Shown piece by piece: positions 18,351 to 30,530 of a stretch of DNA of 39,312 nucleotides. The notes beneath the pieces were generated by a model that saw only the letters and a program-made list of their open reading frames with translations, ran no database searches and was not told the DNA's origin. Position numbers and translations under genes: made by a program. Every line of letters starts with the position of its first letter. Positions within the stretch are counted from its first letter, which is position 1. The stretch is taken from NCBI RefSeq assembly GCF_003061025.1, contig NZ_QAIL01000083.1, positions 29,275 to 68,586 on the forward strand, given 5' to 3'. The stretch is from Pedobacter sp. HMWF019. GTDB taxonomy: Bacteria; Bacteroidota; Bacteroidia; Sphingobacteriales; Sphingobacteriaceae.

Positions 18351-19700
18351 ATGAGTAAAGTATTTACAATTACCGAAGGCCTGGAGAATATGGGTGCATT
18401 GCGCACTGGTGGACAGGGTTCGGTTTATAAGGGGAAACGTGTAGGGACGATTATAACGGCGGTGAAATTGCTGCCAACACCCGTACACACTGAAAGCGAA
18501 GAAGATAAGAACTTTCGGAATTTCCAAAATGAGGTTGAAAAGTTGAAAAAGGTGAATGAGGAGCCTAATCCGAATGTGGTAAAGATTCTGAATTCTGGAA
18601 TCACGGAAAGCGGTTCCTTTCCTTTTATAGAGATGGAATTTATTGACGGACCGGACCTGGAAGATTTGCTAAAACCTCCACATGATCCTGTCTTTTCAAT
18701 AAAAGAAGTCATCAAGGTGGCCGATCAGCTCGCTAATGCCCTGGCGCATTGTCACAAATTTTCGGTGAAGCACGGTGATATCAAGAGTAACAATGTAAAA
18801 TTTAATGTCCATTCGGGCAACTATGTGTTGTTGGATTTCGGTTTGTCTGCGATGTCAGATGATCAGCGCAGAACCAGTATCCGACATGCTGGCGCCATTG
18901 AATTTATGGCTCCGGAACAGAATGAAGGACAATTGCTGTTTCAAACGGATATCTATAGTTACGGAATTATATTATATGAGTTGCTAGCCGGACAGGTACC
19001 TTTTCCTTTAACCGATCAGGGCCAAAAATCTAGAAATGAAGTAATGCTGGCGCATATGGAACAGAATGTTCCGGACTTGACAGAGTTGCGCCGTCAGTAT
19101 ATTCCGGAAAACTGGTCGCCGGAGAAAAGACAGCATGAACTCCAGGTGCCTCAGTGGTTGTTGCAGGTGATTGCAAAATGTTTACAAAAAGATCCCCTAC
19201 AGCGGTTTGGGAATGGTGTGGAACTGCAGGATTTCATTATTCATCATAGCATAGCTTCGGCTGCTGAGGGTGGACAGGTTCTGAACGCTACGCTTTTGCA
19301 AGAAGAGAACGAGCGTTTGCAGGATTTATTGCTGCGTTATCAGGAAACAGAAAGGATGTCTTCTGCGCCTGCTGTGGAAGAAGCGGATGTGATCAGGGTG
19401 GCCAGACCCGTGTTTTATTCGATGATTGTACTGATGGTCGTACTTGCCGGTGCCATGGGACTTTTGCTGTATGGGAATTCGAGCAAGGATGCACAGGAAA
19501 ATACTGGAAAAGGTGGTAATGTATTGAGGGACACAACAAATAAACAAGAGAAGCCGTATACAGAACCTGTAAATGAGGTTGCGCCGGATACCATGACCCT
19601 GGATACCGCTACTAAAATTAAGCCGGTGGAAGTTAAGCCCATTACCAAACCTCCGCACGACAGTACGAAATTAGACTTGGATACCACTGTTCATTTTTAA
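18351..19700 (+). CDS. Membrane Ser/Thr protein kinase
   Basis: A 449-residue Hanks-type kinase. The Gly loop GGQGSVYKG (residues 20-28), catalytic Lys39 (AVKLL), the HxD loop KHGDIKSNN (Asp143), DFG (162-164) and the APE block MAPEQNE are all present, so it should be active. The loop is HGD not HRD, placing it among non-RD kinases. A single membrane helix follows at ~353-375 (SMIVLMVVLAGAMG), leaving a ~75-residue hydrophilic, Thr/Lys/Pro-rich tail outside the membrane; there are no PASTA repeats. It heads the operon with the FHA, phosphatase and SEDS-PBP genes, the arrangement of PknB-type control of cell-wall synthesis. Start: ATG 18351. Confidence 0.9.
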   Translation: MSKVFTITEGLENMGALRTGGQGSVYKGKRVGTIITAVKLLPTPVHTESEEDKNFRNFQNEVEKLKKVNEEPNPNVVKILNSGITESGSFPFIEMEFIDGPDLEDLLKPPHDPVFSIKEVIKVADQLANALAHCHKFSVKHGDIKSNNVKFNVHSGNYVLLDFGLSAMSDDQRRTSIRHAGAIEFMAPEQNEGQLLFQTDIYSYGIILYELLAGQVPFPLTDQGQKSRNEVMLAHMEQNVPDLTELRRQYIPENWSPEKRQHELQVPQWLLQVIAKCLQKDPLQRFGNGVELQDFIIHHSIASAAEGGQVLNATLLQEENERLQDLLLRYQETERMSSAPAVEEADVIRVARPVFYSMIVLMVVLAGAMGLLLYGNSSKDAQENTGKGGNVLRDTTNKQEKPYTEPVNEVAPDTMTLDTATKIKPVEVKPITKPPHDSTKLDLDTTVHF

Positions 19701-19710
19701 CGTTTTATTT

Positions 19711-20664
19711 ATGGAACCAAAAACAACTTTCTGGAAGAAGATTGGCCTTCAGGACCTTTTTCTTCCGGGCAGCAAAACAAAAAAAGCAAAGGCCGCTGCA
19801 CCTGGCCTGACCCCAGATAGCATATATCAGTATATTTTGCAACAGTTTAAAACTTCTATTGCAGAATTGTCTTTTGCAGGACGTGTTGTGTTCTATCATG
19901 AGTACATGATTTGTTTCAATGCGGAAGATTATAAGGAGTTCCTGAGTCAGAAGCAAGGTTTGTTCGGGATCATTGTAGATGAAGTGGTGAAACAGTTCTA
20001 CCAGGTCCTTAAGACTTATGAAAAGGAGGGTAAGAAAGTGCAGCCTTCAAGTTCCAAATGGGTATTTCGCCTGGTTTCGCACCCAGACTATGAAAGAGGA
20101 GATATCGGTTTTATCGGTAAACTGCTTCCTGGAAGTCAGCAGAAGGAAGATAACCTCCGGGTAACGTTTATTCCAAGGCAAACGGGGGTGGTGCAGACTT
20201 TTGATGTAAATGAAGATATCCTGAAAGGATTTACTTATTATAGTGAGGGCTATTATGAATTGCCTTACGCACCAGAGGAAGAATCTGCAGAACACAGCCC
20301 GGTTAAGGCGGTTAAAAAGACCTATGCCAAACTGGATACCATTATGCCAGACCAGAAATATTCGGGCAAAAAGTTCGAATATCTGATGAAAGACGAGGAT
20401 ATTATTGTATCTGGTGCAGAAGAGGAGCGGACAGAGAGTAACATCTTTAGAATTCCTTCAGAATGGGTGGATACGCCACATCTTCGGATTCGCTTCAATT
20501 CGGCCGATGGTAAATTATATCTGGCATCTTTTGGAGAAAAAACAATCATTAACGAGCAACAAGTGCTGCGGAGCAATATCAATGCACCGGTATGGACAGA
20601 GTTGCCGATCAACTCAAAGGTGTTGCTGAACGGAATTATTGGAATTAATATCTTTAAAGGTTGA
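19711..20664 (+). CDS. FhaA-like protein with degenerate FHA domain
   Basis: A 317-residue soluble protein, 10 bases after the kinase. Residues ~33-140 resemble the N-terminal DUF3662 domain of actinobacterial FhaA, with the shared HEYMICFNAEDY pattern (compare NEYIITL in FhaA) and a similar helix after it (IVDEVVKQFYQ). Residues ~245-317 look like an FHA fold (LRIRFNSADGKLYLAS, LLNGIIGI) but lack the usual GR...SxxH phosphothreonine-binding residues. I infer a scaffold or decayed reader of the kinase. The resemblance to FhaA is by pattern, not by alignment, so it is moderate. Confidence 0.6.
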   Translation: MEPKTTFWKKIGLQDLFLPGSKTKKAKAAAPGLTPDSIYQYILQQFKTSIAELSFAGRVVFYHEYMICFNAEDYKEFLSQKQGLFGIIVDEVVKQFYQVLKTYEKEGKKVQPSSSKWVFRLVSHPDYERGDIGFIGKLLPGSQQKEDNLRVTFIPRQTGVVQTFDVNEDILKGFTYYSEGYYELPYAPEEESAEHSPVKAVKKTYAKLDTIMPDQKYSGKKFEYLMKDEDIIVSGAEEERTESNIFRIPSEWVDTPHLRIRFNSADGKLYLASFGEKTIINEQQVLRSNINAPVWTELPINSKVLLNGIIGINIFKG

Positions 20665-20665
20665 T

Positions 20666-20764
20666 ATGTTGTCGCAGATATTAACCTGGGCGCTTCTGCT
20701 CATTTGTATAGTACTTTTGGCGGGGCATTTTACAAACATTAAAGATCAGGGGAATGGAGAATAG
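20666..20764 (+). CDS. Putative 32-residue single-pass membrane peptide
   Basis: ATG at 20666 begins one base after the previous stop; TAG ends at 20764, overlapping the start of the phosphatase gene by 11 bases. The peptide is one hydrophobic helix (WALLLICIVLLAG) with a short hydrophilic tail. It fits exactly in the only gap of the operon, so I think it is translated, perhaps coupling the flanking genes or anchoring the phospho-signalling complex. No homology is recognised; it could also be a chance ORF. Confidence 0.4.
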   Translation: MLSQILTWALLLICIVLLAGHFTNIKDQGNGE

Positions 20765-21857
20765 ATTATTTGGTCAAACGGATATCGGAAAGACCAGAGA
20801 TAATAATGAAGATGCTTTCCTGGCCGAACGTATTGGCGGAAGCGATTTACTGCTTGCCGTTGTAATTGACGGGGTTGGTGGCTACGAAGGGGGAGAAATC
20901 GCTGCGGAGATTGCCCAGACCTGCATCCGAAGAAGCTTGGTTGGATTAGGCAGAGCGGATATTCTTCCAGCACTGATTTCAGCTGTCCGGGAAGCCAATC
21001 AGGAGATTTTTACGCATAAAAGCCAGGATCCTGCGTTGGATAAAATGGCTTGTGTACTAACGCTTGTGGTAGCAGATCCGGAACAAAATCAGTTTTACTA
21101 TGCTCATGTTGGGGATACCCGTCTGTATTTATTGCGGGACAAAGCATTGGTGAAGATTACTCAAGACCAGAGTTTTGTGGGCTTCCTGGAAGATTCGGGC
21201 AGGTTGACAGAGGCTGCTGCTATGCAGCACCCTAAAAGAAATGAGATTAACCAGGCGCTTGGCCTGGAAGAAACAGCTCGTCTTCGAAGCGATTTTATCG
21301 AAACCGGGCAATCTCCTTTTCTTCCGGGAGATACATTGCTGCTTTGCAGCGATGGCTTGACAGACCGTATTGATAAAGAAAAGATTACCGCTTTGCTGAA
21401 CCAGGACCATTTGCCTGCAGTGGCGCAAGCTCTGATTGATGCGGCTAATGCCGCCGGGGGGCACGACAATATTACGGTGGTTCTGGTTAAAAATGATAAA
21501 ACACCTGCACAGCACCAGCCTGCTAAACCTGCTCCAAAGCAGGAAACTGTGGTATCTGTTCAGTCACCTGCTCCGGTAACATCTACAAGGAATCCGGTTA
21601 AAGTAGTGAGGAACAGGGGTTGGGTGGCTTTATTGCTGGGGCTTTCAGTAGCGTTGCTGGGGCTTTCCGGATGGTTATATATGCAGCTTGACCTGATACA
21701 ACATCAGATCCGGCCACTGGCTCCTGTATATGAAAATCCATGGCAGCCCTTACAGCTTGGCCTGGATACGATGAAAAAACCTTTACGAGATAGTGTGTAT
21801 TATACTGATTCTGTAGCTAAGTCCTTAAAACCGCATGGAAAAAAATCAGTTAGATAG
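20754..21857 (+). CDS. Membrane-anchored PP2C-type Ser/Thr phosphatase
   Basis: A 367-residue protein. Residues ~1-250 form a PP2C domain with all metal-binding motifs: RDNNEDAF (~15-22), VVIDGVGGYEGGE (36-48), HVGDTRLYLLR, LLLCSDGLTD (~200) and GGHDNITVVLV near 237. A Pro/Ala-rich linker is followed by a membrane helix (~292-312, ALLLGLSVALLGLSG) and a short external tail. The topology is like actinobacterial PstP, which opposes PknA/PknB. It begins inside the small ORF and its last 23 bases overlap one possible start of the next gene, so the products are probably made in stoichiometry. Confidence 0.93.
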   Translation: MENRLFGQTDIGKTRDNNEDAFLAERIGGSDLLLAVVIDGVGGYEGGEIAAEIAQTCIRRSLVGLGRADILPALISAVREANQEIFTHKSQDPALDKMACVLTLVVADPEQNQFYYAHVGDTRLYLLRDKALVKITQDQSFVGFLEDSGRLTEAAAMQHPKRNEINQALGLEETARLRSDFIETGQSPFLPGDTLLLCSDGLTDRIDKEKITALLNQDHLPAVAQALIDAANAAGGHDNITVVLVKNDKTPAQHQPAKPAPKQETVVSVQSPAPVTSTRNPVKVVRNRGWVALLLGLSVALLGLSGWLYMQLDLIQHQIRPLAPVYENPWQPLQLGLDTMKKPLRDSVYYTDSVAKSLKPHGKKSVR

Positions 21858-24800
21858 TCATATGCAGAAAAAGGTCGGCAGGGGCAAGGAACGTTTGTTT
21901 CTTGGATTGACTGCCATTGTTCTGGTGCTGTTATTTTTTCGCTTGTTTGGCGTATTGCAGCATCGTTTCCAGGGTACGGACCTGAAATTGAAGCAGGGAA
22001 CCATAGTGAACTTGAATGGAACAGACCCAGTTGGTGGGATTAGCTCGGTTTTGACCCATGGGAATTATGACCTGGACAGCCGAGATATTGCTTTTATTTC
22101 AAAAGTGCTGCAAAGCCGCTTTAATGAAGGTGGACATTTTCAGAACATCGGAGAGCTGAATAAACAAAAGTATTATGTCCTTGCTGAGGAGGCCGAGGCA
22201 GAAGGAGGAGAATCGTTTAGGAAAAGAGTGCTTTTATCCAGATCTCTTCTGGGTTATGACAAAGATGAAGGGCTTTCTTATGAGGCTGAAAAGACCAGAC
22301 CTAAGGCTTTGCCTGAAAGTATTGATCTTAAAGCCGGTGCATACGCAATTAATGGAAGGGTTTCAGGAAAGAGTGGAGGCATTGCCGGGGTATTGGTGAA
22401 GCTGGAAATGATCCTGCCAAAAGACAGCCTCGACATCCAGCCGCTAACGGCTTTTGTGCGGACAGATGCCGAAGGCAAATTTGAGTTTGGGCATCTTCCT
22501 GCAGACAGGGCTTATGAAATTTTGCCTTTGCAACCAGGAAATGAATTTGGTAAGGTACAAGGAGTTGCTGGCCTTCAGGGTAACAAGTCTTTTAACTTTT
22601 ATCAGAAACCACATACGATCCGCCTGCTCTCTTCCAGAGATTTTAATACGCTAAAGGCTGATGGTGCTTTTATCGTCCGTTCACCTGCACAATTCATTTC
22701 TGCTTACTGGACGGTGGCCGGTGTTTTTTTTCTGACCTTCTTGTTGGTTCATGTACTGCTCAGCATCTGGGCTCCAATAGCAGACCAGTTTCTGCTTCCG
22801 CTGCTGATGATTTTGACTGGATTGTCTTTGCTGACCCTGATGAGTTTACAGGATCCTCTGAGAGATCGTTTTCTGGCTATAGATACTTTGTATTTCCTTA
22901 CCGCAGGCCTGTTGGTGATGATGGTGCTTGCCTTAATGAACCTGCGCCTTTTTCATCCGGATTCCAGGTTGTACCGCATGTTTGTATTCCGTACACAGCG
23001 GGAAGCGGCGAATGGCTGGCCATGGATTGTGCTTGGAATGCTGCTATTGCTCTGTACCATTGTACTAGGCTCTGGGCCTGAAGGAAGTGGTGTTAAGGTG
23101 AACCTGCTTGGGGTACAACCCAGTGAGTTGGTGAAATACCTGGTCATCTTATTTCTTGCTGGTTTTTTTGCACTTAATGAAAGGTTCATTTCCGAATATT
23201 CGAGCTGGAGAAAACGCTGGTCTTTCTTTTCTTTTGCACTGGCTGCGATAGTATTGACCTTATTGCTGTTCCTGGCTTTGGGGGATTTGGGCCCGGCTAT
23301 TGTCATCTGTTTTACTTTTATCATCCTTTTCTCTTTTTCAAGGGGTGATTTTATGATCATGGCGGCTTTTGTAGGTCTGTATATTCTTGCGTCTTTTATT
23401 TTTAGTAATGTTTGGATCGTTGCAGCAATTGCTTTTGGAATATGGGTGCTGGTGCAGTTGTTTAAACGGAAATGGGCTAGTGAATCGGCTTTGATGGCCT
23501 TGGTGGTTATCACGGCCTTTATGACCATTGATAAAATGCCCTTTCTACACCAGCTTGTACCCGGACCTGTGGAACGTCTGGCAGATCGAAAAGCGATTTG
23601 GCAGGATGCCTGGAACAATGAGGTGTATGGAGGCGATCAGGTTGCTAACGGACTTTGGGCTATGGCCAGTGGTGGTTTTTCGGGTCAGGGTACGGGTGAA
23701 GGTTATGCTAAAACTATTCCTGAAGCACATACCGATATGATTTTACCGGCTGTAGGAGAAGAGTTTGGTTGGGCAGGTATGGTTTGTATCTTTATTTTGT
23801 TCCTGGTATATCTGCATCGGGCCATTCTGATTGGACGGCAAACGGGCAACCCTTTTTTGTTTTACATCTGTGCCGGAATAGGCATCAGTACATTTATACA
23901 GTTTCTGCTGATAGCGGGGGGATCTACAGGTGCATTACCCTTGTCAGGTGTTTCTTTGCCATTTGAAAGTTATGGAGGTTCTTCGCTGATAATTAACCTG
24001 GTGGCAGCCGGATTTTTGCTCGGTGCTTCCTCTGTTTCGGGAACCAAGGTACAGATGGCGTATCTGACCCGGCAGCAGGATGCGAACCTGGTTCCTGCAC
24101 TTGTGGCAGCCAGTACAGGAATGATCCTGCTGGTCGTGAATATTGGTGGTTATGCGTTGAATAATCATAAATGGATTGCTAAACCTGCACTGGTGGCTGA
24201 TAAGAGTGGTATCAGGATGTTTAGTTATAATCCGAGGATTGCGATTTTAATGCGAAAGCTGGAAGCTGGTTCTTTATTTGACCGGGAAGGTCGTTTACTC
24301 GCGACAAGTGATCCGCAGTTGGTGCTGAAGCAGAAAGATTTGTTGAATGCTGCGGGTGCCGGGAATTACAACCTGGATTCTGCCATGCATAAACGGCCTG
24401 CGCGCTATTATCCTTTTGAGGAACAATTGTTTTTTTGGACAGGAGATGCCAATACAGGTGTTTTTACCGGAGGAATAAACGGATATTTTGGAGAATATGA
24501 GCATGCAGCAGAACTTCGTGGTTTTAAGATGCCGGTAACCAGTTATGATGTTACAGCCTCGAAATACCGCGAAGACCGGTTTTTGCCAAGAGGAATAAAG
24601 GAGATGACGGTGCAGAAAAGGGATTACAGCGCACTTGTTCCTTTATTGCTTTCGGGCCTGGATAGCGCAGAAATAGCGGCATTGAAACATAAGAACCGAG
24701 ATGTGAAGCTGGCGGTAGATGCTGCGCTTCAAACGAGTATCCAGCAATCGGTAGCTAAAGACCCTGCATTTAAGGACAGCCGCGTATCGGTGGTGGTAAT

Positions 24801-25806
24801 GGAAGCGGGAACAGGCGATGTTCTCGCTTCTGCAGCTTTTCCCTTACCTGCGGTACACAACTGGGAACAACTCAGTTTAAACCAGGCAGATCAGAATAAA
24901 CTGGCTGGATGGATCACGAATGCAGATCCAGGTTTTACTATTGCGACTCAACCAGGCTCTACGGCAAAGATCTTAACGGCTATGGCTGCGTTTAATAAAC
25001 TTGGACCGGGGGCAGCCGATAAGACTTTTTTGGTTAAAGCCAATGAAAGGATCAGGACAAGGGGAGCGGAACCGGATGAAACAGGATTGATCAATATGGA
25101 GAATGCTGTGGTAAAATCCAATAATGTATATTTTATCAAACTGGCCAACCAGGAGCATTTACAGGAGCAAATGGGAACTTTGTACCTGAAAACAGGTATG
25201 TTCCTTCATGGGGTTGGTGGTTATTATTACAACCGGAAAACCGATAATGAAGCGCAGGAAGCTAAATGGTTTGAGCTGTGGCGGAAGACTGAATTTAAGA
25301 GTGCCTATAATCCGAATAATATATACCGGAACCGGGCAACTGGGATCTCCGGGATGGCCTGGGGACAGGGAGAACTGATTGCTACACCTGCCTCGGTAGC
25401 GCGGATGGCGGCAGGAATTGCCAACCAGGGCAATTTAAGGCCCAACCGTTATGCTTTGCAAATCAGTGATTCTGCAGTAGTGGTAAAACCATCTGTTCCA
25501 CTGGCAGATAAGGCCGTTTATGCAAGTTTGCTTACTCAATTTATGGAGGAACAAAGTGCGGGCAAGGCAGGGATATTGGGTATTACAGTAGCAGGAAAAA
25601 CGGGTACGCCTGAAAGGATCTGGAAACGGAGAAAAATCAATGACGGCTGGTATGTTTTCTTTGCGCCAAGTGCCAAAGGAACTGGAAATACGGTGGTGTG
25701 TGTGCGTATTGAGTCAACCAGAGGATCGTCTATGGCAGTGCGGCTTGCTGGAGAACATGTTGTTCCGTTCCTGGTTGAGAAAGGATATATGAAGAGTATT
25801 CACTAA
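21835..25806 (+). CDS. RodA/FtsW SEDS glycosyltransferase fused to class B PBP transpeptidase
   Basis: A 1323-residue fusion. After one TM helix (~22-40), residues ~165-255 form an external Ig/CarboxypepD_reg-like domain (INGRVSGKSGGIAG, DAEGKFEFGHLPA). Residues ~280-760 are a multi-pass SEDS domain with VQPSELVK, the WAMASGGFSGQGTGEG stretch and PEAHTDMI with the presumed catalytic Asp634. After a further TM (~757-777) the periplasmic PBP begins (GSLFDREGRLLATSD). The transpeptidase motifs are complete: SxxK Ser1042-Lys1045 (GSTAK), SxN Ser1095-Asn1097 (KSNNV), KTG 1255-1257. Family knowledge: SEDS proteins polymerise glycan and class B PBPs cross-link; they normally work as separate partners. 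Start: ATG 21835, or ATG 21862 just after the phosphatase stop. Confidence 0.92.
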   Translation: MEKNQLDSHMQKKVGRGKERLFLGLTAIVLVLLFFRLFGVLQHRFQGTDLKLKQGTIVNLNGTDPVGGISSVLTHGNYDLDSRDIAFISKVLQSRFNEGGHFQNIGELNKQKYYVLAEEAEAEGGESFRKRVLLSRSLLGYDKDEGLSYEAEKTRPKALPESIDLKAGAYAINGRVSGKSGGIAGVLVKLEMILPKDSLDIQPLTAFVRTDAEGKFEFGHLPADRAYEILPLQPGNEFGKVQGVAGLQGNKSFNFYQKPHTIRLLSSRDFNTLKADGAFIVRSPAQFISAYWTVAGVFFLTFLLVHVLLSIWAPIADQFLLPLLMILTGLSLLTLMSLQDPLRDRFLAIDTLYFLTAGLLVMMVLALMNLRLFHPDSRLYRMFVFRTQREAANGWPWIVLGMLLLLCTIVLGSGPEGSGVKVNLLGVQPSELVKYLVILFLAGFFALNERFISEYSSWRKRWSFFSFALAAIVLTLLLFLALGDLGPAIVICFTFIILFSFSRGDFMIMAAFVGLYILASFIFSNVWIVAAIAFGIWVLVQLFKRKWASESALMALVVITAFMTIDKMPFLHQLVPGPVERLADRKAIWQDAWNNEVYGGDQVANGLWAMASGGFSGQGTGEGYAKTIPEAHTDMILPAVGEEFGWAGMVCIFILFLVYLHRAILIGRQTGNPFLFYICAGIGISTFIQFLLIAGGSTGALPLSGVSLPFESYGGSSLIINLVAAGFLLGASSVSGTKVQMAYLTRQQDANLVPALVAASTGMILLVVNIGGYALNNHKWIAKPALVADKSGIRMFSYNPRIAILMRKLEAGSLFDREGRLLATSDPQLVLKQKDLLNAAGAGNYNLDSAMHKRPARYYPFEEQLFFWTGDANTGVFTGGINGYFGEYEHAAELRGFKMPVTSYDVTASKYREDRFLPRGIKEMTVQKRDYSALVPLLLSGLDSAEIAALKHKNRDVKLAVDAALQTSIQQSVAKDPAFKDSRVSVVVMEAGTGDVLASAAFPLPAVHNWEQLSLNQADQNKLAGWITNADPGFTIATQPGSTAKILTAMAAFNKLGPGAADKTFLVKANERIRTRGAEPDETGLINMENAVVKSNNVYFIKLANQEHLQEQMGTLYLKTGMFLHGVGGYYYNRKTDNEAQEAKWFELWRKTEFKSAYNPNNIYRNRATGISGMAWGQGELIATPASVARMAAGIANQGNLRPNRYALQISDSAVVVKPSVPLADKAVYASLLTQFMEEQSAGKAGILGITVAGKTGTPERIWKRRKINDGWYVFFAPSAKGTGNTVVCVRIESTRGSSMAVRLAGEHVVPFLVEKGYMKSIH

Positions 25807-25816
25807 ATTTAGAAGT

Positions 25817-26644
25817 ATGTTTAACCTGTTTAAAAAAAATAAAGATCAGCGGCCAATGGATGTGAAGGTTCTTCGGGAGGAGATCCTCTATTTTGTTAAA
25901 GAGGAGTTGCAGAAACTGGAAGGGGGTGAGGGCAGGAATGTAGAATCGATACAACTTTATGCGGTGGTGCCGGCAGAAGAACAGTATTTGTATGAAGCAG
26001 CACTCCACATGCCGGAGCCCCAATTGTTGAAGCAGGAAGTTCAACGGATCTCTGATAATTTTGCTGTTGAGCTTCCCTTGCACTGGATATTGGAGACTGG
26101 GCTAAAGGAAAGTTTTCCGGTTGGTGCTGCGTTGTGCCAGGTTCTTCCTTTGTCCTTTTCTTTGAAAATGAAAACTGCAGTTGCAGAGACTAAAGCTCTT
26201 ACTGCAATTACTGAAAAAAGGGGCAGAACGGCCAGGCTTCAAATATTGAACGGACAGGCAGAAAAGCAAGACTATGTGCTGCGGGCAGACGATGGACGTA
26301 TCAATCTGGGACGTGAAAAAAATGTACCTATGATCAATGGATCCGTTCGAATCAATGGAATTGCTTTTCCTGGTGATGCGGACCATGCAGGCAATAGATT
26401 TGTGAGCCGACAGCATGCGCATCTGGAATGGGATGAAGGCAAAAATGGTTTTATGTTGTTTGCAGATGAAGGTGGCATTCCCCCTGGTAACAAAACAAAG
26501 ATTAAAACCTTAAAAAGTGAAGATCAGCTGAAGTTGAATTCTGCGGAAGTAGGCTATTTAATGGAAGACGGCGATCAGATCATTCTTGGAGAATCTGTTG
26601 TGCTCAGGTTCAACTATACCGCAAAAAAGGAAGATGAATTATAG
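25817..26644 (+). CDS. FHA-domain phosphopeptide-binding protein
   Basis: A 275-residue soluble protein, 10 bases after the fusion gene. Residues ~15-115 form an N-terminal alpha/beta region (LREEILYFVKEELQKL, SIQLYAVV) that I cannot assign firmly. The C-terminal ~138-268 is a canonical FHA domain with GRE (165-167), SRQH (197-200) and GNKT (224-227), so phosphothreonine binding is likely intact. In the operon it is the obvious reader of the kinase product, unlike the degenerate FHA of the second gene. Cytoplasmic; no signal or TM segments. Confidence 0.87.
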   Translation: MFNLFKKNKDQRPMDVKVLREEILYFVKEELQKLEGGEGRNVESIQLYAVVPAEEQYLYEAALHMPEPQLLKQEVQRISDNFAVELPLHWILETGLKESFPVGAALCQVLPLSFSLKMKTAVAETKALTAITEKRGRTARLQILNGQAEKQDYVLRADDGRINLGREKNVPMINGSVRINGIAFPGDADHAGNRFVSRQHAHLEWDEGKNGFMLFADEGGIPPGNKTKIKTLKSEDQLKLNSAEVGYLMEDGDQIILGESVVLRFNYTAKKEDEL

Positions 26645-26654
26645 ACACTAAGCT

Positions 26655-28385
26655 ATGGAGAACATTGCACTTGCATTATCCGGAGGTGGATTCAGAGCGG
26701 CTTTATTTTCTATGGGTAGCCTGAGTTATCTGAACCGGCTTAAAGTAGGAGACCACAGTTTGCTGCATCAGGTCAAATATATTTCTTCTTCCTCCGGGGG
26801 CAGTATTGCCAATTTGGTGTACAGCAGTTATATTTTTCAGGGCAAAACATTTGAGGAGGCCTACGTTAGACTTTGGACAGATCTGGATGGGGAAGATCTG
26901 ATCAAACGGGCTTTTAAGCTATTGAAAGACGACCGCAAATGGAAACACCGTCACGAGAAAAGCAGGAATCTGGTAAATGCTTTTGCTTTGGCTTATGATG
27001 AATTGTTTGAAGGATTGAATTTTGAAATTTTCTCAGATCGTAGTGCAGATCCACATCTGGATGAGATCTGTATCAATGCTACAGAGTTTGCCAATGGGGT
27101 TTCTTTCCGTTTCCAGTCCCAGCATCCGGGAAACTATCCTAAAGGAAGGATTGGAAATGCTTATATCAAGTTTAAAGCCCGGGGAATGGCTGCAGCAAAA
27201 AAAATGAAACTGGCAGATATCCTGGCCAGTTCTTCCTGTTTCCCCGGTGGTTTCGAACCCGTGGTTTTTCCGGATGATTTTGTATACAAGGGACTTAGTA
27301 AACATGAGCTGCTGGAACATCTGGTATATAAATATAGTCCAAGTACCTTACCTAAAGGGAAAGACTGGCTGCATAATCCTGATTTTGATAAGAATACACA
27401 ATTTTGTCTGATGGATGGAGGGGTTGCGGACAACCAGGGAATTGAGAGTATGGTACTGGCCAATGAAAGGCGAAGGGAGAAACTTGGGGATTTCAGCATG
27501 ATGATCCTATGTGATGTAACGAGTTATTTCATGGATGCTTATACTTTTCCTACAGAAAATAGAAAACACTGGTATGAAAGGGTCAACATCCAGCAGTTGA
27601 TCAACCTGCTTAAAATATTTGCAGTATTAAATGCGGGGATGCTGGTGAGTGCTTTTTTGTTTGGCTGGCACAATTGGGTGAGGGTATTGACGATTCCAGG
27701 GTTACTGGTTACTTTTCTTTATTTACTAGGTACTTACCGGCTTTTAGATGCAAGGAGAGTGGCTGCAGAAAAACAGAACACCTGGGTGATCGTTTTTTTT
27801 AAGTATGTAGATTATTTTCTAAAGGTGAGGATCAGCGCTGTCGAGCAGATGATCATGGCCAGGTTTAAATCGGTGATGATGATGAACACAGACATCTATC
27901 TGAAACAGATCCGAAGGCTATATTATGATAAGATCTTTAAGCATTCCAAACTTAAAAAAGTGGCTGTGATGAATTCGATTTATGAATTAAGCAAGGCCAA
28001 CCAAAAACTGAAAAGGGAAAAACCGAAATTGAAAACCGAGGTGGGCTTTTCAGCAGAACAGCCAGTAATTACGAACATTAAGCCTTCTGAAGCAATGATG
28101 GAAGTGGCCGAAAAGGCCAGAACTATGGATACCACCCTCTGGTTTGATGATAACCATACCAAAGACAATCGAAAAGCAGCTATTATTGCAACAGCCCAGT
28201 TTACTTTGTGTTACAACCTGATTAATCATTTCAGCCAGCCAGAAAAAGCTATGGCTTTGACCCAGGAGGAAAAGGAACTGAAACGGCTTCTGCTGCAGGA
28301 CTGGCATTTATTTCATAAAGATCCCTATTTTATGTATAATGATCTGGGGAAACAATTGATTCCCGATTTTACTGCTGCTGTGTAA
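26655..28385 (+). CDS. Patatin-like phospholipase with membrane segments
   Basis: A 576-residue serine lipase. The oxyanion motif SGGGFRA is at residues 9-15, the nucleophile Ser47 sits in SSSSGGS (first Gly of GxSxG replaced by Ser, as in other members of this subgroup), and the catalytic Asp is in MDGGVADNQG (Asp254). Around 315-365 there are two hydrophobic helices (LLKIFAVLNAGMLVSAFLFG and PGLLVTFLYLLGTYRLL), which would anchor it to the inner membrane. The last ~200 residues are charged and unassigned. It starts 10 bases after the FHA gene and closes the operon. Its link to envelope signalling (lipid turnover during growth) is inference. Confidence 0.85.
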   Translation: MENIALALSGGGFRAALFSMGSLSYLNRLKVGDHSLLHQVKYISSSSGGSIANLVYSSYIFQGKTFEEAYVRLWTDLDGEDLIKRAFKLLKDDRKWKHRHEKSRNLVNAFALAYDELFEGLNFEIFSDRSADPHLDEICINATEFANGVSFRFQSQHPGNYPKGRIGNAYIKFKARGMAAAKKMKLADILASSSCFPGGFEPVVFPDDFVYKGLSKHELLEHLVYKYSPSTLPKGKDWLHNPDFDKNTQFCLMDGGVADNQGIESMVLANERRREKLGDFSMMILCDVTSYFMDAYTFPTENRKHWYERVNIQQLINLLKIFAVLNAGMLVSAFLFGWHNWVRVLTIPGLLVTFLYLLGTYRLLDARRVAAEKQNTWVIVFFKYVDYFLKVRISAVEQMIMARFKSVMMMNTDIYLKQIRRLYYDKIFKHSKLKKVAVMNSIYELSKANQKLKREKPKLKTEVGFSAEQPVITNIKPSEAMMEVAEKARTMDTTLWFDDNHTKDNRKAAIIATAQFTLCYNLINHFSQPEKAMALTQEEKELKRLLLQDWHLFHKDPYFMYNDLGKQLIPDFTAAV

Positions 28386-28502: not shown

Positions 28503-30530
28503 ATGAAAAGATCAACTCTTTTTATTGCAGTATTGCTGCTGGCAGGTGGATTTGCAGCCCTTGCTCAACGGCATGATTCCCAACCCTCCAGATGGAAGAT
28601 TCAGCCAGATGGAAGCATTCGCTGGATGATTGATAATGAATTGCCCCACGATGATCATATAGAGATGGCAGGGGAAAAAGTAGCTTTCTGGGTTGCTTAT
28701 GGTGTAGATAAAGAGAGAAAGACAAAGCTAAGCAGGGTGGTGGTGTTTCCAACCTTCCGGATGCTGCCGGATGCAACCAGAAGCCATATCTCTTATCGTT
28801 TTGAAGATAACGAATTACCCAGGTTTTACGTGAAAGGAAAGCAGCTGGATTTTACTGGCGGTACTGGATATGAGGTGAGATCGGTGAGCCAGAAGGGGAT
28901 TATGCGGATAGTGGGAACCTATGGTTCCCCGGGTATACTGGATGTGGAGAGGAGCTTTTTTCCTTCGGTAGACCAGCCTCTGGCTATTGAAAAGTTTGTT
29001 TTTACAAACCGGTCTGCACAAGAATTTCCGGTTTCTATGGAGTATCTAAAAAAGGAGGTTCGAACAGACGCAGCCACGAGTAAGGTTCGCCAGCATTCTA
29101 TAATTATGGGGACGGTTGGGGACGGAAGTTATAGGATTAAGCCAGGGCAATCTGTAAGCTTTGCTGTGTATTACCTGGCTACAGATTATCCGGAAAATCT
29201 GGAAGGAATACAAGTAGAAATTGAAGAACAGAAAAGAATAAACAGAATTAAAGAAATTCAGGATCCGATGAAACTGGAAACGCCTGATAACTTGTTGAAT
29301 ACAGCTTTTGATTTTGCAAAACTAAGAGCAACTGAAAGCATTTATAAAACCAAAGGTGGTTACATGCACGGACCCGGAGGTCTGCAGTACTATGCAGCGA
29401 TTTGGGCAAATGACCAGGCGGAGTATGTAAATCCTTATTTTGCCTTCTCTGGAGACAGGCTGGGAAAGCTGTCGGCCATGAATTCTTATCGCTGGTTTGC
29501 CAGGTATATGAACCCGGATTATAAGCCCATTCCAAGCTCTATTGTGGCTGAAGGCGATGCTGTCTGGAAAGGAGCTGGAGACCGGGGTGATCAGGCGATG
29601 ATTGCTTACGGAGCTTCAAGATATGCCCTGGCTAATGGAAATATAGACTCTGCCCGTGTGTTATGGCCATTAATTGAATGGTGTCTGGAATACAGCCGCA
29701 GGAAAATGAATTCAGAAGGTGTGGTGACTTCAGATAAGGATGAGCTGGAGGGGCGCTTCCCTGCTGGAAAAGCCAATCTGGCAACTAACACGCTATATTA
29801 TGATGCTTTACGTTCTGCTGTTTACCTGGGGCCGTTGCTCGGTTTGCCCGCATCGAAAACGGGGGCCTACCGTAAGCAGGCAGATGAACTTCGTGAGCAT
29901 ATTGAAAAATATTTTGGCGGAACAGTAGAAGGTTTTGAGACCTATAAATATTACGAAGGTAACGATGTGCTCAGAGCATGGATTTGTTTGCCTTTGACGG
30001 TTGGGTTGTACAATAGGAAAGCAGGCACGATTAAAGCCTTGTTTTCCCCAAGGCTGTGGACAGCAGATGGCCTGGCTACACAAGCGGGTCAAGAAACTTT
30101 CTGGGACCGGTCTACTTTGTATGCCCTAAGAGGGGTGCTTGAGGCTGGTGAAACAGAAAAAGCGATGGATTTTATTCGATACTATTCTTCCCGTCGTTTG
30201 CTTGGAGCACACGTGCCTTATCCAGTTGAAGCTTACCCTGAAGGGAACCAGCGTCACTTATCTGCCGAAAGTGGATTGTATTGCCGGATTTTTACAGAAG
30301 GTTTATTTGGAATCCGGCCAACTGGATTTAACAGTTTTAGCTGTACGCCAAGAATGCCAAAAGGCTGGGATACTTATGCATTGCGTAACGTTCATTCCTT
30401 TGGCCATATTTTTGATCTGGAGATTTCACGAGCAGGAAGAGACAAACTTAAGATTTGTCTGAGATGCAGGGGAAAACAGAAGGTCTATATGATTAGGGAG
30501 GGAAAGACAGGACTGGTTACACTTTATTGA
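28503..30530 (+). CDS. Secreted six-hairpin glycosidase-like protein
   Basis: A 675-residue exported protein with a Sec signal (MKRSTLFIAVLLLAGGFAALA, then Q). A beta-sandwich domain fills ~30-250; the rest is an (alpha/alpha)6-type catalytic region with YMHGPGGLQYYAAIWANDQAE, AEGDAVWKGAGDRGDQA and LSAESGLYCRIFTEGLFGI, in line with six-hairpin glycosidases (GH78/GH63-like clan). Acidic residues in the WANDQAE and AEGDAVW stretches are candidate catalytic groups; I cannot name a family. No SusCD pair adjoins it. Its stop overlaps the convergent aldehyde dehydrogenase (30524-30530). Confidence 0.7.
   Translation: MKRSTLFIAVLLLAGGFAALAQRHDSQPSRWKIQPDGSIRWMIDNELPHDDHIEMAGEKVAFWVAYGVDKERKTKLSRVVVFPTFRMLPDATRSHISYRFEDNELPRFYVKGKQLDFTGGTGYEVRSVSQKGIMRIVGTYGSPGILDVERSFFPSVDQPLAIEKFVFTNRSAQEFPVSMEYLKKEVRTDAATSKVRQHSIIMGTVGDGSYRIKPGQSVSFAVYYLATDYPENLEGIQVEIEEQKRINRIKEIQDPMKLETPDNLLNTAFDFAKLRATESIYKTKGGYMHGPGGLQYYAAIWANDQAEYVNPYFAFSGDRLGKLSAMNSYRWFARYMNPDYKPIPSSIVAEGDAVWKGAGDRGDQAMIAYGASRYALANGNIDSARVLWPLIEWCLEYSRRKMNSEGVVTSDKDELEGRFPAGKANLATNTLYYDALRSAVYLGPLLGLPASKTGAYRKQADELREHIEKYFGGTVEGFETYKYYEGNDVLRAWICLPLTVGLYNRKAGTIKALFSPRLWTADGLATQAGQETFWDRSTLYALRGVLEAGETEKAMDFIRYYSSRRLLGAHVPYPVEAYPEGNQRHLSAESGLYCRIFTEGLFGIRPTGFNSFSCTPRMPKGWDTYALRNVHSFGHIFDLEISRAGRDKLKICLRCRGKQKVYMIREGKTGLVTLY

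What the first reader, a model, noticed from the sequence alone, without database searches (positions are those of the whole stretch)
18351..28385. Bacteroidota counterpart of the actinobacterial pknB cell-wall operon
Seven genes, spaced by 10 bases or fewer or overlapping, encode a membrane Ser/Thr kinase, FhaA-like protein, tiny membrane peptide, membrane PP2C, a RodA-PbpA fusion, a canonical FHA protein and a membrane patatin. In Mycobacterium the same functions (fhaA, fhaB, pstP, rodA, pbpA, pknA, pknB) are clustered. Finding it in a Bacteroidota genome, with the SEDS and PBP fused and a lipase added, suggests a phospho-controlled peptidoglycan synthesis module not described for this phylum as far as I know.
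Basis: partly seen in the sequence, partly recalled or inferred. Interest (0 to 1): 0.88.

Follow-up and report, generated by a model that had tools for sequence, protein, structure and literature searches.

The report
Kinase-linked fused cell-wall synthase operon
A Pedobacter genome carries a conserved set of neighbouring genes in which one protein that should both build and cross-link the cell wall is encoded together with a kinase, a phosphatase, phosphate-reading proteins and a tiny membrane peptide; it resembles a wall-control gene set known from the tuberculosis-bacterium group and may be a movable, switchable wall-building unit.

Summary
In detail: 18351-28385 holds a tight same-strand run of kinase, FhaA-like protein, 32-aa membrane peptide, membrane PP2C, a 1323-aa SEDS(RodA/FtsW)-class B PBP fusion, an FHA protein and a patatin, in a Pedobacter. 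The set recurs: of 80 named loci with the fusion, 63 hold FhaA-like, PP2C, kinase, fusion and FHA genes (58 of 66 away from sequence ends), in several Bacteroidota families and Acidobacteriota; one copy is on a Spirosoma plasmid. The patatin is local. The tiny peptide is real (small hydrophobic ORF after 62 of 70 fhaA-like genes against 68 of 633 other genes). In the SEDS tree 22 fusions form one clade, apart from host RodA/FtsW and from Rhodococcus fusions; they lie on the same side of the tree as the RodA of the actinobacterial fhaA-fhaB-pstP-rodA-pbpA-pknA-pknB cluster, though a sister relation is weakly supported. All 12 fusion-bearing genomes examined keep two other SEDS genes, so this is a third, accessory synthase. 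Best reading: a horizontally spread, Ser/Thr-phosphorylation-controlled peptidoglycan synthase module; a new variant of a known kind. Phospho-control is inferred, not shown.

The parts
18351..19700 (+). membrane Ser/Thr kinase: cytoplasmic kinase domain (HGD, DFG, APE motifs by eye), one TM near residues 353-375 by eye, short tail, no PASTA
   Evidence: no PASTA here or in 10 kinases of relatives
19711..20664 (+). FhaA-like protein: N-terminal domain (FhaA_N-like in some relatives) plus C-terminal FHA fold whose usual phospho-threonine-site residues are replaced in this lineage
20666..20764 (+). 32-aa single-pass membrane micropeptide, conserved in position and sequence
20754..21857 (+). PP2C phosphatase of the Stp/PstP type with one TM segment (by eye)
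21835..25806 (+). natural SEDS-class B PBP fusion: N-terminal TM, extracytoplasmic domain, SEDS polymerase, transpeptidase; catalytic residues kept
25817..26644 (+). FHA protein with GR...SRQH signature
26655..28385 (+). patatin-like phospholipase with hydrophobic segments; co-directional but not a conserved part of the module

Best explanation
The region encodes a third, accessory peptidoglycan synthase under Ser/Thr phospho-control. SHOWN by sequence: one polypeptide joins a SEDS glycan polymerase to a class B transpeptidase with catalytic residues kept; it is encoded with a membrane kinase, a membrane PP2C, an FhaA-like protein, an FHA protein and a membrane micropeptide; this set is conserved in Bacteroidota and Acidobacteriota, the fusions form one clade, and they coexist with two other SEDS genes in every genome examined. 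INFERRED: the kinase and PP2C set the phosphorylation of the FHA partners and/or the cytoplasmic face of the fusion; the FHA proteins recruit or switch the synthase; the micropeptide is a membrane subunit of this complex; the fusion fixes polymerase and cross-linker at 1:1. The module probably derives from the same stock as the actinobacterial fhaA-fhaB-pstP-rodA-pbpA-pknA/B cluster and has moved horizontally.
For: Gene set conserved: 63 of 80 named loci, 58 of 66 not near a sequence end. Counts include the window's own genome: 77 of 301 genomes sampled in the family, 41 of 89 in the genus (counted), 15 of 395 in the phylum sample (17 matches less two short canonical SEDS ORFs); 8 of 297 in the Acidobacteriota sample. 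SEDS tree: 22 fusions (chosen of 81) one clade, 100/100; canonical RodA/FtsW split off at 100/100; AU test rejects fusions with Bacteroidota RodA (p 8e-5) and with Bacteroidota FtsW (p 0.003). Catalytic residues kept in 13 of 13 aligned fusions. In Roseithermus a PP2C domain is fused in frame in front of the SEDS-PBP, a direct link of phosphatase to synthase. Micropeptide control: 62 of 70 versus 68 of 633. Two other SEDS genes in 12 of 12 genomes. Module on a Spirosoma plasmid, peptide included.
Against: No experiment. In the window's lineage the FhaA-like FHA domain lacks the Arg in 13 of 13 rows and the Ser in 11 of 13 that canonical FHA domains use (canonical residues recalled), so it may not bind phospho-threonine. 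No PASTA in the 11 kinases scanned. The sister relation of fusions to actinobacterial RodA is weak (78/55), and the PBP tree does not join them. Lone or nearly lone fusions occur (Flavobacterium L146; L140 with the FHA gene only). FhaA_N exceeds its Pfam cut-off in 1 of 9 proteins scanned. The 11 Acidobacteriota loci of the 80 are all metagenome bins.
Confidence: 0.72

Rival explanations
1. The fusion is simply the lineage's ordinary elongation or division synthase that happened to fuse, and the kinase, phosphatase and FHA genes are casual neighbours.
For: SEDS and PBP domains hit the generic FtsW, RodA and PBP2 models.
Against: Each of 12 genomes keeps two other SEDS genes; the window's genome has one SEDS gene next to a PBP2-like gene and another 4 kb from a second class B PBP. 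AU test rejects grouping with Bacteroidota RodA or FtsW. NCBIfam FtsW, RodA and PBP2 scores are far below cut-off. The neighbours are conserved in two phyla.
Confidence: 0.05
2. A stress- or antibiotic-responsive back-up synthase: the module's main role is to keep wall synthesis going when beta-lactams or envelope damage disable the canonical synthases, with the kinase as damage sensor.
For: Accessory third synthase, patchy distribution, one plasmid copy; kinase lengths vary between loci (431-664 aa in 11 kinases). Low-affinity back-up PBPs are a known strategy (established knowledge, recalled).
Against: No direct evidence for induction or low drug affinity; this refines the best explanation rather than replacing phospho-control.
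Confidence: 0.35
3. An anti-phage or abortive-infection module: kinase, phosphatase and patatin effector.
For: The kinase matches PADLOC PD-T4-6 models, and patatins occur as defence effectors (recalled).
Against: The PADLOC kinase hits look like general kinase similarity; of the seven proteins scanned only the PP2C gave another hit, a weak one. The patatin is not conserved next to the module. A catalytically intact SEDS-PBP is not a defence effector that I know of (recalled).
Confidence: 0.04

Closest known systems
Actinobacterial fhaA-fhaB-pstP-rodA-pbpA-pknA-pknB cluster
   Same: Same functional kinds in one run: FhaA-type and second FHA protein, membrane PP2C, SEDS, class B PBP, membrane kinase(s); SEDS domain on the same side of a 100/100 split (PMC6554272 and PMC11898655, passages)
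   Different: SEDS and PBP fused into one protein with an added extracytoplasmic domain; kinases examined without PASTA; order differs (FHA gene after the synthase, micropeptide in the place of fhaB); accessory, patchy, and on a plasmid in one case
Rhodococcus natural SEDS-PBP fusions (a Rhodococcus RHA1 genome is cited for such fusions in PMC10449877)
   Same: SEDS and class B PBP in one chain, here on plasmids
   Different: About 940-950 aa; no kinase, PP2C or FHA gene listed beside them in L204 and L260; not one clade with these fusions (AU p 0.007); PBP part lies with PBP2: an independent fusion
FHA-SEDS-PBP gene run of Monoglobus (Clostridia)
   Same: FHA gene directly before adjacent SEDS and PBP genes; its SEDS gave the highest score of the unfused SEDS genes tested with the fusion SEDS profile (163 bits; actinobacterial cluster RodA 140-158; hosts' own RodA/FtsW 80-113)
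   Different: Separate genes; no kinase or PP2C listed in the 10-kb stretch shown
RodA-PBP2 and FtsW-FtsI of the elongasome and divisome
   Same: Fold and, by conserved residues, chemistry; Foldseek hits to solved FtsW and RodA
   Different: Separate genes, still present beside the fusion in the same genome

Membership tests
Actinobacterial pstP/pknB cell-wall cluster | FhaA protein (FhaA_N plus FHA) encoded in the run | tested here: inconclusive
   FHA fold C-terminal; the family profile hits the FHA domain of TB39.8, titled FhaA in entry 3oun, at 2.6e-4 (best hit overall is SLMAP, 4.2e-7); PF12401 listed in 5 of 9 proteins scanned, above cut-off in 1, not in the window protein; profile comparison with two actinobacterial FhaA aligned only the FHA part
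Actinobacterial pstP/pknB cell-wall cluster | membrane PP2C of PstP/Stp type in the run | tested here: met
   NF033484 matched over its full length, though at 199.9 bits against a cut-off of 230; TM segment by eye; PP2C in the conserved run
Actinobacterial pstP/pknB cell-wall cluster | SEDS of the same clade as cluster RodA | tested here: inconclusive
   Same side of a 100/100 split from canonical RodA/FtsW, but grouping with Actinobacteria alone only 78/55
Actinobacterial pstP/pknB cell-wall cluster | separate rodA and pbpA genes | tested here: not met
   One 1323-aa frame
Actinobacterial pstP/pknB cell-wall cluster | PASTA-bearing PknB kinase | tested here: not met
   No PASTA hit in the window kinase (E <= 0.01) or in 10 kinases of relatives (E <= 1e-4); NF033483 134.3 bits against 450
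Actinobacterial pstP/pknB cell-wall cluster | kinase phosphorylates cell-wall proteins, FHA reads pThr | not testable with these tools
   needs biochemistry
Canonical RodA-PBP2 / FtsW-FtsI | orthology to the host's own RodA or FtsW | tested here: not met
   AU test p 8e-5 and 0.003; equivalog cut-offs not reached
Rhodococcus-type SEDS-PBP fusion | same fusion event (one clade) | tested here: not met
   AU p 0.007; PBP tree places them with PBP2; long-branch warning
Functional SEDS-class B PBP synthase | catalytic residues of both enzymes | tested here: met
   SEDS Asp in HTDM/HTDL, PBP S-x-x-K, S-x-N and K-(T/S)-G kept in 13 of 13 aligned fusions; which residues are catalytic is recalled

The most novel reading that the evidence does not exclude
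A self-contained, horizontally mobile, phosphorylation-gated peptidoglycan synthase spread over at least two phyla. A single-chain polymerase and cross-linker is switched by its own kinase, phosphatase and FHA readers (in one lineage the phosphatase is fused to the synthase), together with a membrane micropeptide that sits where the membrane-anchored fhaB sits in Actinobacteria and may be a reduced form of it or a new regulatory subunit of the synthase.
Probability: 0.45. Interest if true: 0.85.

Novelty: new variant of a known kind. Interest (0 to 1): 0.74.

Why it matters
How SEDS-PBP synthases are switched on is a central open question in cell-wall biology. Here the synthase, its presumed writer, eraser and readers, and a small membrane subunit are packed into one apparently transferable unit, in mostly environmental bacteria (recalled) that also keep ordinary synthases, so the whole unit can be deleted or moved and tested. 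It extends a wall-control logic known from Actinobacteria (and partly Firmicutes) to Gram-negative phyla, and it supplies a natural single-chain SEDS-PBP for structural work.

Tried and rejected
Patatin as a module part: rejected. Orthology of the fusion to host RodA or FtsW: rejected. A common origin with Rhodococcus fusions: rejected, with a long-branch warning. The unions tested by AU were chosen after the tree was seen. Two further clade tests did not finish. Defence module: PADLOC gave kinase hits and one weak PP2C hit only. FhaA_N by profile comparison with two actinobacterial FhaA proteins aligned only the FHA part; pairwise BLASTP gave nothing useful. The VIA-align rows for the FhaA-like model begin at residue 193 or later, so its N-terminal domain is untested by fold. 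The PBP tree does not join the fusions to actinobacterial PbpA. Promoter and terminator scan found no more sites than shuffles. An apparent extra N-terminal part of the fusion in L189 read like out-of-frame high-GC sequence and was set aside. Micropeptide: 7 of 67 loci lack it (no such frame seen by eye, where L144 holds an unread base); 3 of the 60 found lack the H/N-F/W motif (L142, L156, L168). Rows dropped: two canonical SEDS ORFs (G665, G700) from the 17 phylum matches. The genome scan kept 80 of 330 relatives, so presence in further phyla is open. The 80-locus count rests on a simple ORF caller of mine; at least L174 has its fhaA-like gene in two pieces that the five-gene limit missed. 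Broken copies: G002 has the fusion over two frames, G012 has one internal stop.
Full report
WHAT IS THERE. The run 18351-28385 is real: seven ORFs on the + strand with gaps of 10, 1, -11, -23, 10 and 10 nt. Pfam names a protein kinase, a PP2C, a SEDS domain followed by a transpeptidase domain in one 1323-aa frame, and a patatin; the FHA protein scores just below cut-off, and the FhaA-like protein and the small peptide have no hit. The window lies in a 6.9-Mb genome. Its genus is Pedobacter: the contig of genus-mate G017 that bears the fusion (181,256 bases) has the length and match position of a Pedobacter westerhofensis contig in the named scan (L154).

THE FUSION. An alignment of 13 fusions keeps the SEDS Asp of HTD(M/L) and the PBP motifs S-x-x-K, S-x-N and K-(T/S)-G in all rows (which residues are catalytic is recalled). 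A model of residues 1-770 (mean pLDDT 87, pTM 0.85) matches solved FtsW and RodA structures (seven hits, Foldseek E 3.5e-11 to 2.2e-5). It has an extra N-terminal TM and an extracytoplasmic domain, helical then beta-rich; the next hits (E from 0.002) are to unrelated enzymes and pilins and do not settle its identity. In 10 of the 11 Acidobacteriota loci the fusion is shorter (1038-1091 aa) and this N-terminal part is reduced.

CONSERVATION. Counts include the window's genome. In the genus 41 of 89 genomes hold the fusion (rows with E 0); in a family sample 77 of 301 at E <= 1e-30; in a phylum sample 15 of 395 after setting aside two canonical SEDS ORFs. In 20 of 20 other Pedobacter loci read, fhaA-like, PP2C, fusion and FHA genes are in this order, with one or two kinases before or after. 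In a second set of 20 loci, 14 show the full set by BLAST with the window's proteins and six distant ones do not. A scan of named genomes gave 330 relatives, best 80 kept: 67 Bacteroidota, 11 Acidobacteriota, 2 Rhodothermota. All five gene kinds lie on one strand within five genes of the fusion in 63 of 80 (56 of 67, 7 of 11, 0 of 2), and in 58 of the 66 whose fusion is not close to an end of the DNA held. The eight exceptions among those 66 are L122, L124 (its PP2C is fused to the synthase), L135, L138, L140, L146, L151 and L174. In an Acidobacteriota sample 8 of 297 genomes match at E <= 1e-40; in the class of G529, 5 of 146. A Spirosoma oryzicola plasmid carries FHA-PP2C-kinase-kinase-fusion-FHA.

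ORIGIN. In the plasmid collection the best matches of an acidobacterial fusion over both domains are SEDS-PBP pairs of Nonomuraea and Nocardia, then Monoglobus, the Spirosoma fusion, Actinomyces and Tsukamurella. The last two are annotated inside a DUF3662/FHA - FHA - (PP2C, listed in Actinomyces only) - RodA - PBP - kinase - PknB run. With a profile of the fusion SEDS, Monoglobus scores 163 bits, RodA of the four Actinobacteria 140-158, and the hosts' own RodA and FtsW 80-113. In a 57-row SEDS tree the 22 fusions (chosen of 81) are one clade (100/100). A 100/100 branch parts 28 rows (Bacteroidota RodA and FtsW, Acidobacteriota RodA and FtsW, two proteobacterial RodA, two Firmicutes SEDS, two Rhodococcus fusions; RodA and FtsW labels partly mine) from 29 (fusions, six Actinobacteria, Monoglobus); fusions plus Actinobacteria alone have only 78/55. 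AU tests reject fusions with Bacteroidota RodA (p 8e-5), Bacteroidota FtsW (p 0.003) and Rhodococcus fusions (p 0.007). The PBP tree again gives one fusion clade (15 rows, 100/100) and puts Rhodococcus with PBP2, but does not join fusions to actinobacterial PbpA. Within the fusions, Segetibacter and Ginsengibacter (Chitinophagaceae) sit inside Sphingobacteriaceae, while Niastella (Chitinophagaceae) lies with Spirosomataceae and one Flavobacterium inside these; with the plasmid copy this points to horizontal transfer (inference).

THE TINY PEPTIDE. A small membrane peptide follows the fhaA-like gene in 60 of 67 loci; 58 of the 60 are 27-33 aa long (range 23-39) and 57 have an H/N-F/W pair. Seven loci lack it. 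As a control with one rule for all, a small hydrophobic ORF follows 62 of 70 fhaA-like genes but 68 of 633 other genes, 12 of 105 kinases, 5 of 76 FHA, 3 of 80 fusion and 2 of 73 PP2C genes. With the H/N-F/W motif after a hydrophobic run the figures are 55 of 70 against 3 of 633, 3 of 105, 0 of 76, 0 of 80 and 0 of 73. Pooled pN/pS is 0.34 in 26 and 0.39 in 13 same-length peptides, with synonymous sites near saturation and no correction for relatedness. It is also in the Spirosoma plasmid, where the gene table, which is incomplete, lists nothing between the two genes. It sits where the second FHA gene (fhaB) sits in Actinomyces. In Nonomuraea the ORF just before the PP2C-like one begins with a hydrophobic stretch (by eye, not tested for FHA). 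A common origin is speculation.

READERS AND WRITERS. FhaA-like relatives in Acidobacteriota and in L122 and L124 keep G-R ... V-S-R-E-H; those of Spirosomataceae and Niastella type have A-R ... V-S-(N/D)-P-H; the 13 rows of the window's lineage have lost the Arg (13 of 13) and mostly the Ser (11 of 13). The second FHA protein keeps G-R ... S-R-Q-H in the window and in the four others of its lineage looked at. The likely phospho-threonine reader here is therefore the 25817-26644 protein, with the FhaA-like protein perhaps a scaffold (inference). Eleven kinases scanned have a kinase domain and no PASTA. In Roseithermus, a complete chromosome, a PP2C domain is fused in frame in front of the SEDS-PBP.

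ROLE. All 12 fusion-bearing genomes examined have two further SEDS genes (in G788 one is in two pieces at contig ends). In the window's genome one of them overlaps a PBP2-like gene and the other lies 4 kb from a second class B PBP gene. The fusion is thus an additional synthase. That kinase and phosphatase act on it is inferred from gene order, the PP2C fusion and the actinobacterial precedent, in which pstP is co-transcribed with rodA and pbpA and knock-down alters the wall (PMC6554272, abstract and passages).

LITERATURE. Natural SEDS-PBP single ORFs are mentioned in PMC10449877 (passages), citing the Rhodococcus RHA1 genome (reference list); that RHA1 protein was not examined. PMC6207328 (passage) reports a working engineered RodA-PBP2 fusion. 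PMC6554272 gives the cluster as conserved in Actinobacteria and pknB-fhaA in a subset of Firmicutes; [quoted passage not shown] Searches listed no paper whose title or abstract start describes the module in Bacteroidota or Acidobacteriota; searches listed only 20 of 33 and 15 of 50 papers. The library lacks most subscription journals and bioRxiv.

Noticed in passing
window 20666-20764; Membrane micropeptide, mostly 27-33 aa, conserved in Bacteroidota and Acidobacteriota and easily missed because of its size; not found in 7 of 67 loci, including three Pedobacter (L154, L169, L197).
   Followed up: yes
L109/L124 (Roseithermus sacchariphilus CP030158.1): PP2C domain fused in frame to the SEDS-PBP fusion: a three-enzyme single chain.
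   Followed up: partly
L108:11435-12802 and L109:10479-11750: In two loci of the G529 class the downstream FHA protein carries an N-terminal Swt1-like HEPN domain; its role is unclear.
   Followed up: no
L204 6089-8929, L260 3507-6332: Independent SEDS-PBP fusions on Rhodococcus plasmids, without listed kinase or FHA neighbours.
   Followed up: partly
L105 (G529, second copy): A second, divergent SEDS-PBP fusion (1307 aa, 33% identical to the first) in the same genome, with a kinase-domain gene about 4 kb upstream and a different context.
   Followed up: no
L146 (Flavobacterium sp. SUN052): Fusion without FhaA-like, PP2C or kinase neighbours in the only Flavobacteriaceae locus of the 80; an FHA gene lies several genes away.
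   Followed up: no
window 28503-30530: 675-aa protein with a signal-like start and no Pfam or NCBIfam match; also found downstream of the FHA gene in L061 (74% identical), where a pectate-lyase-like gene lies between them.
   Followed up: no
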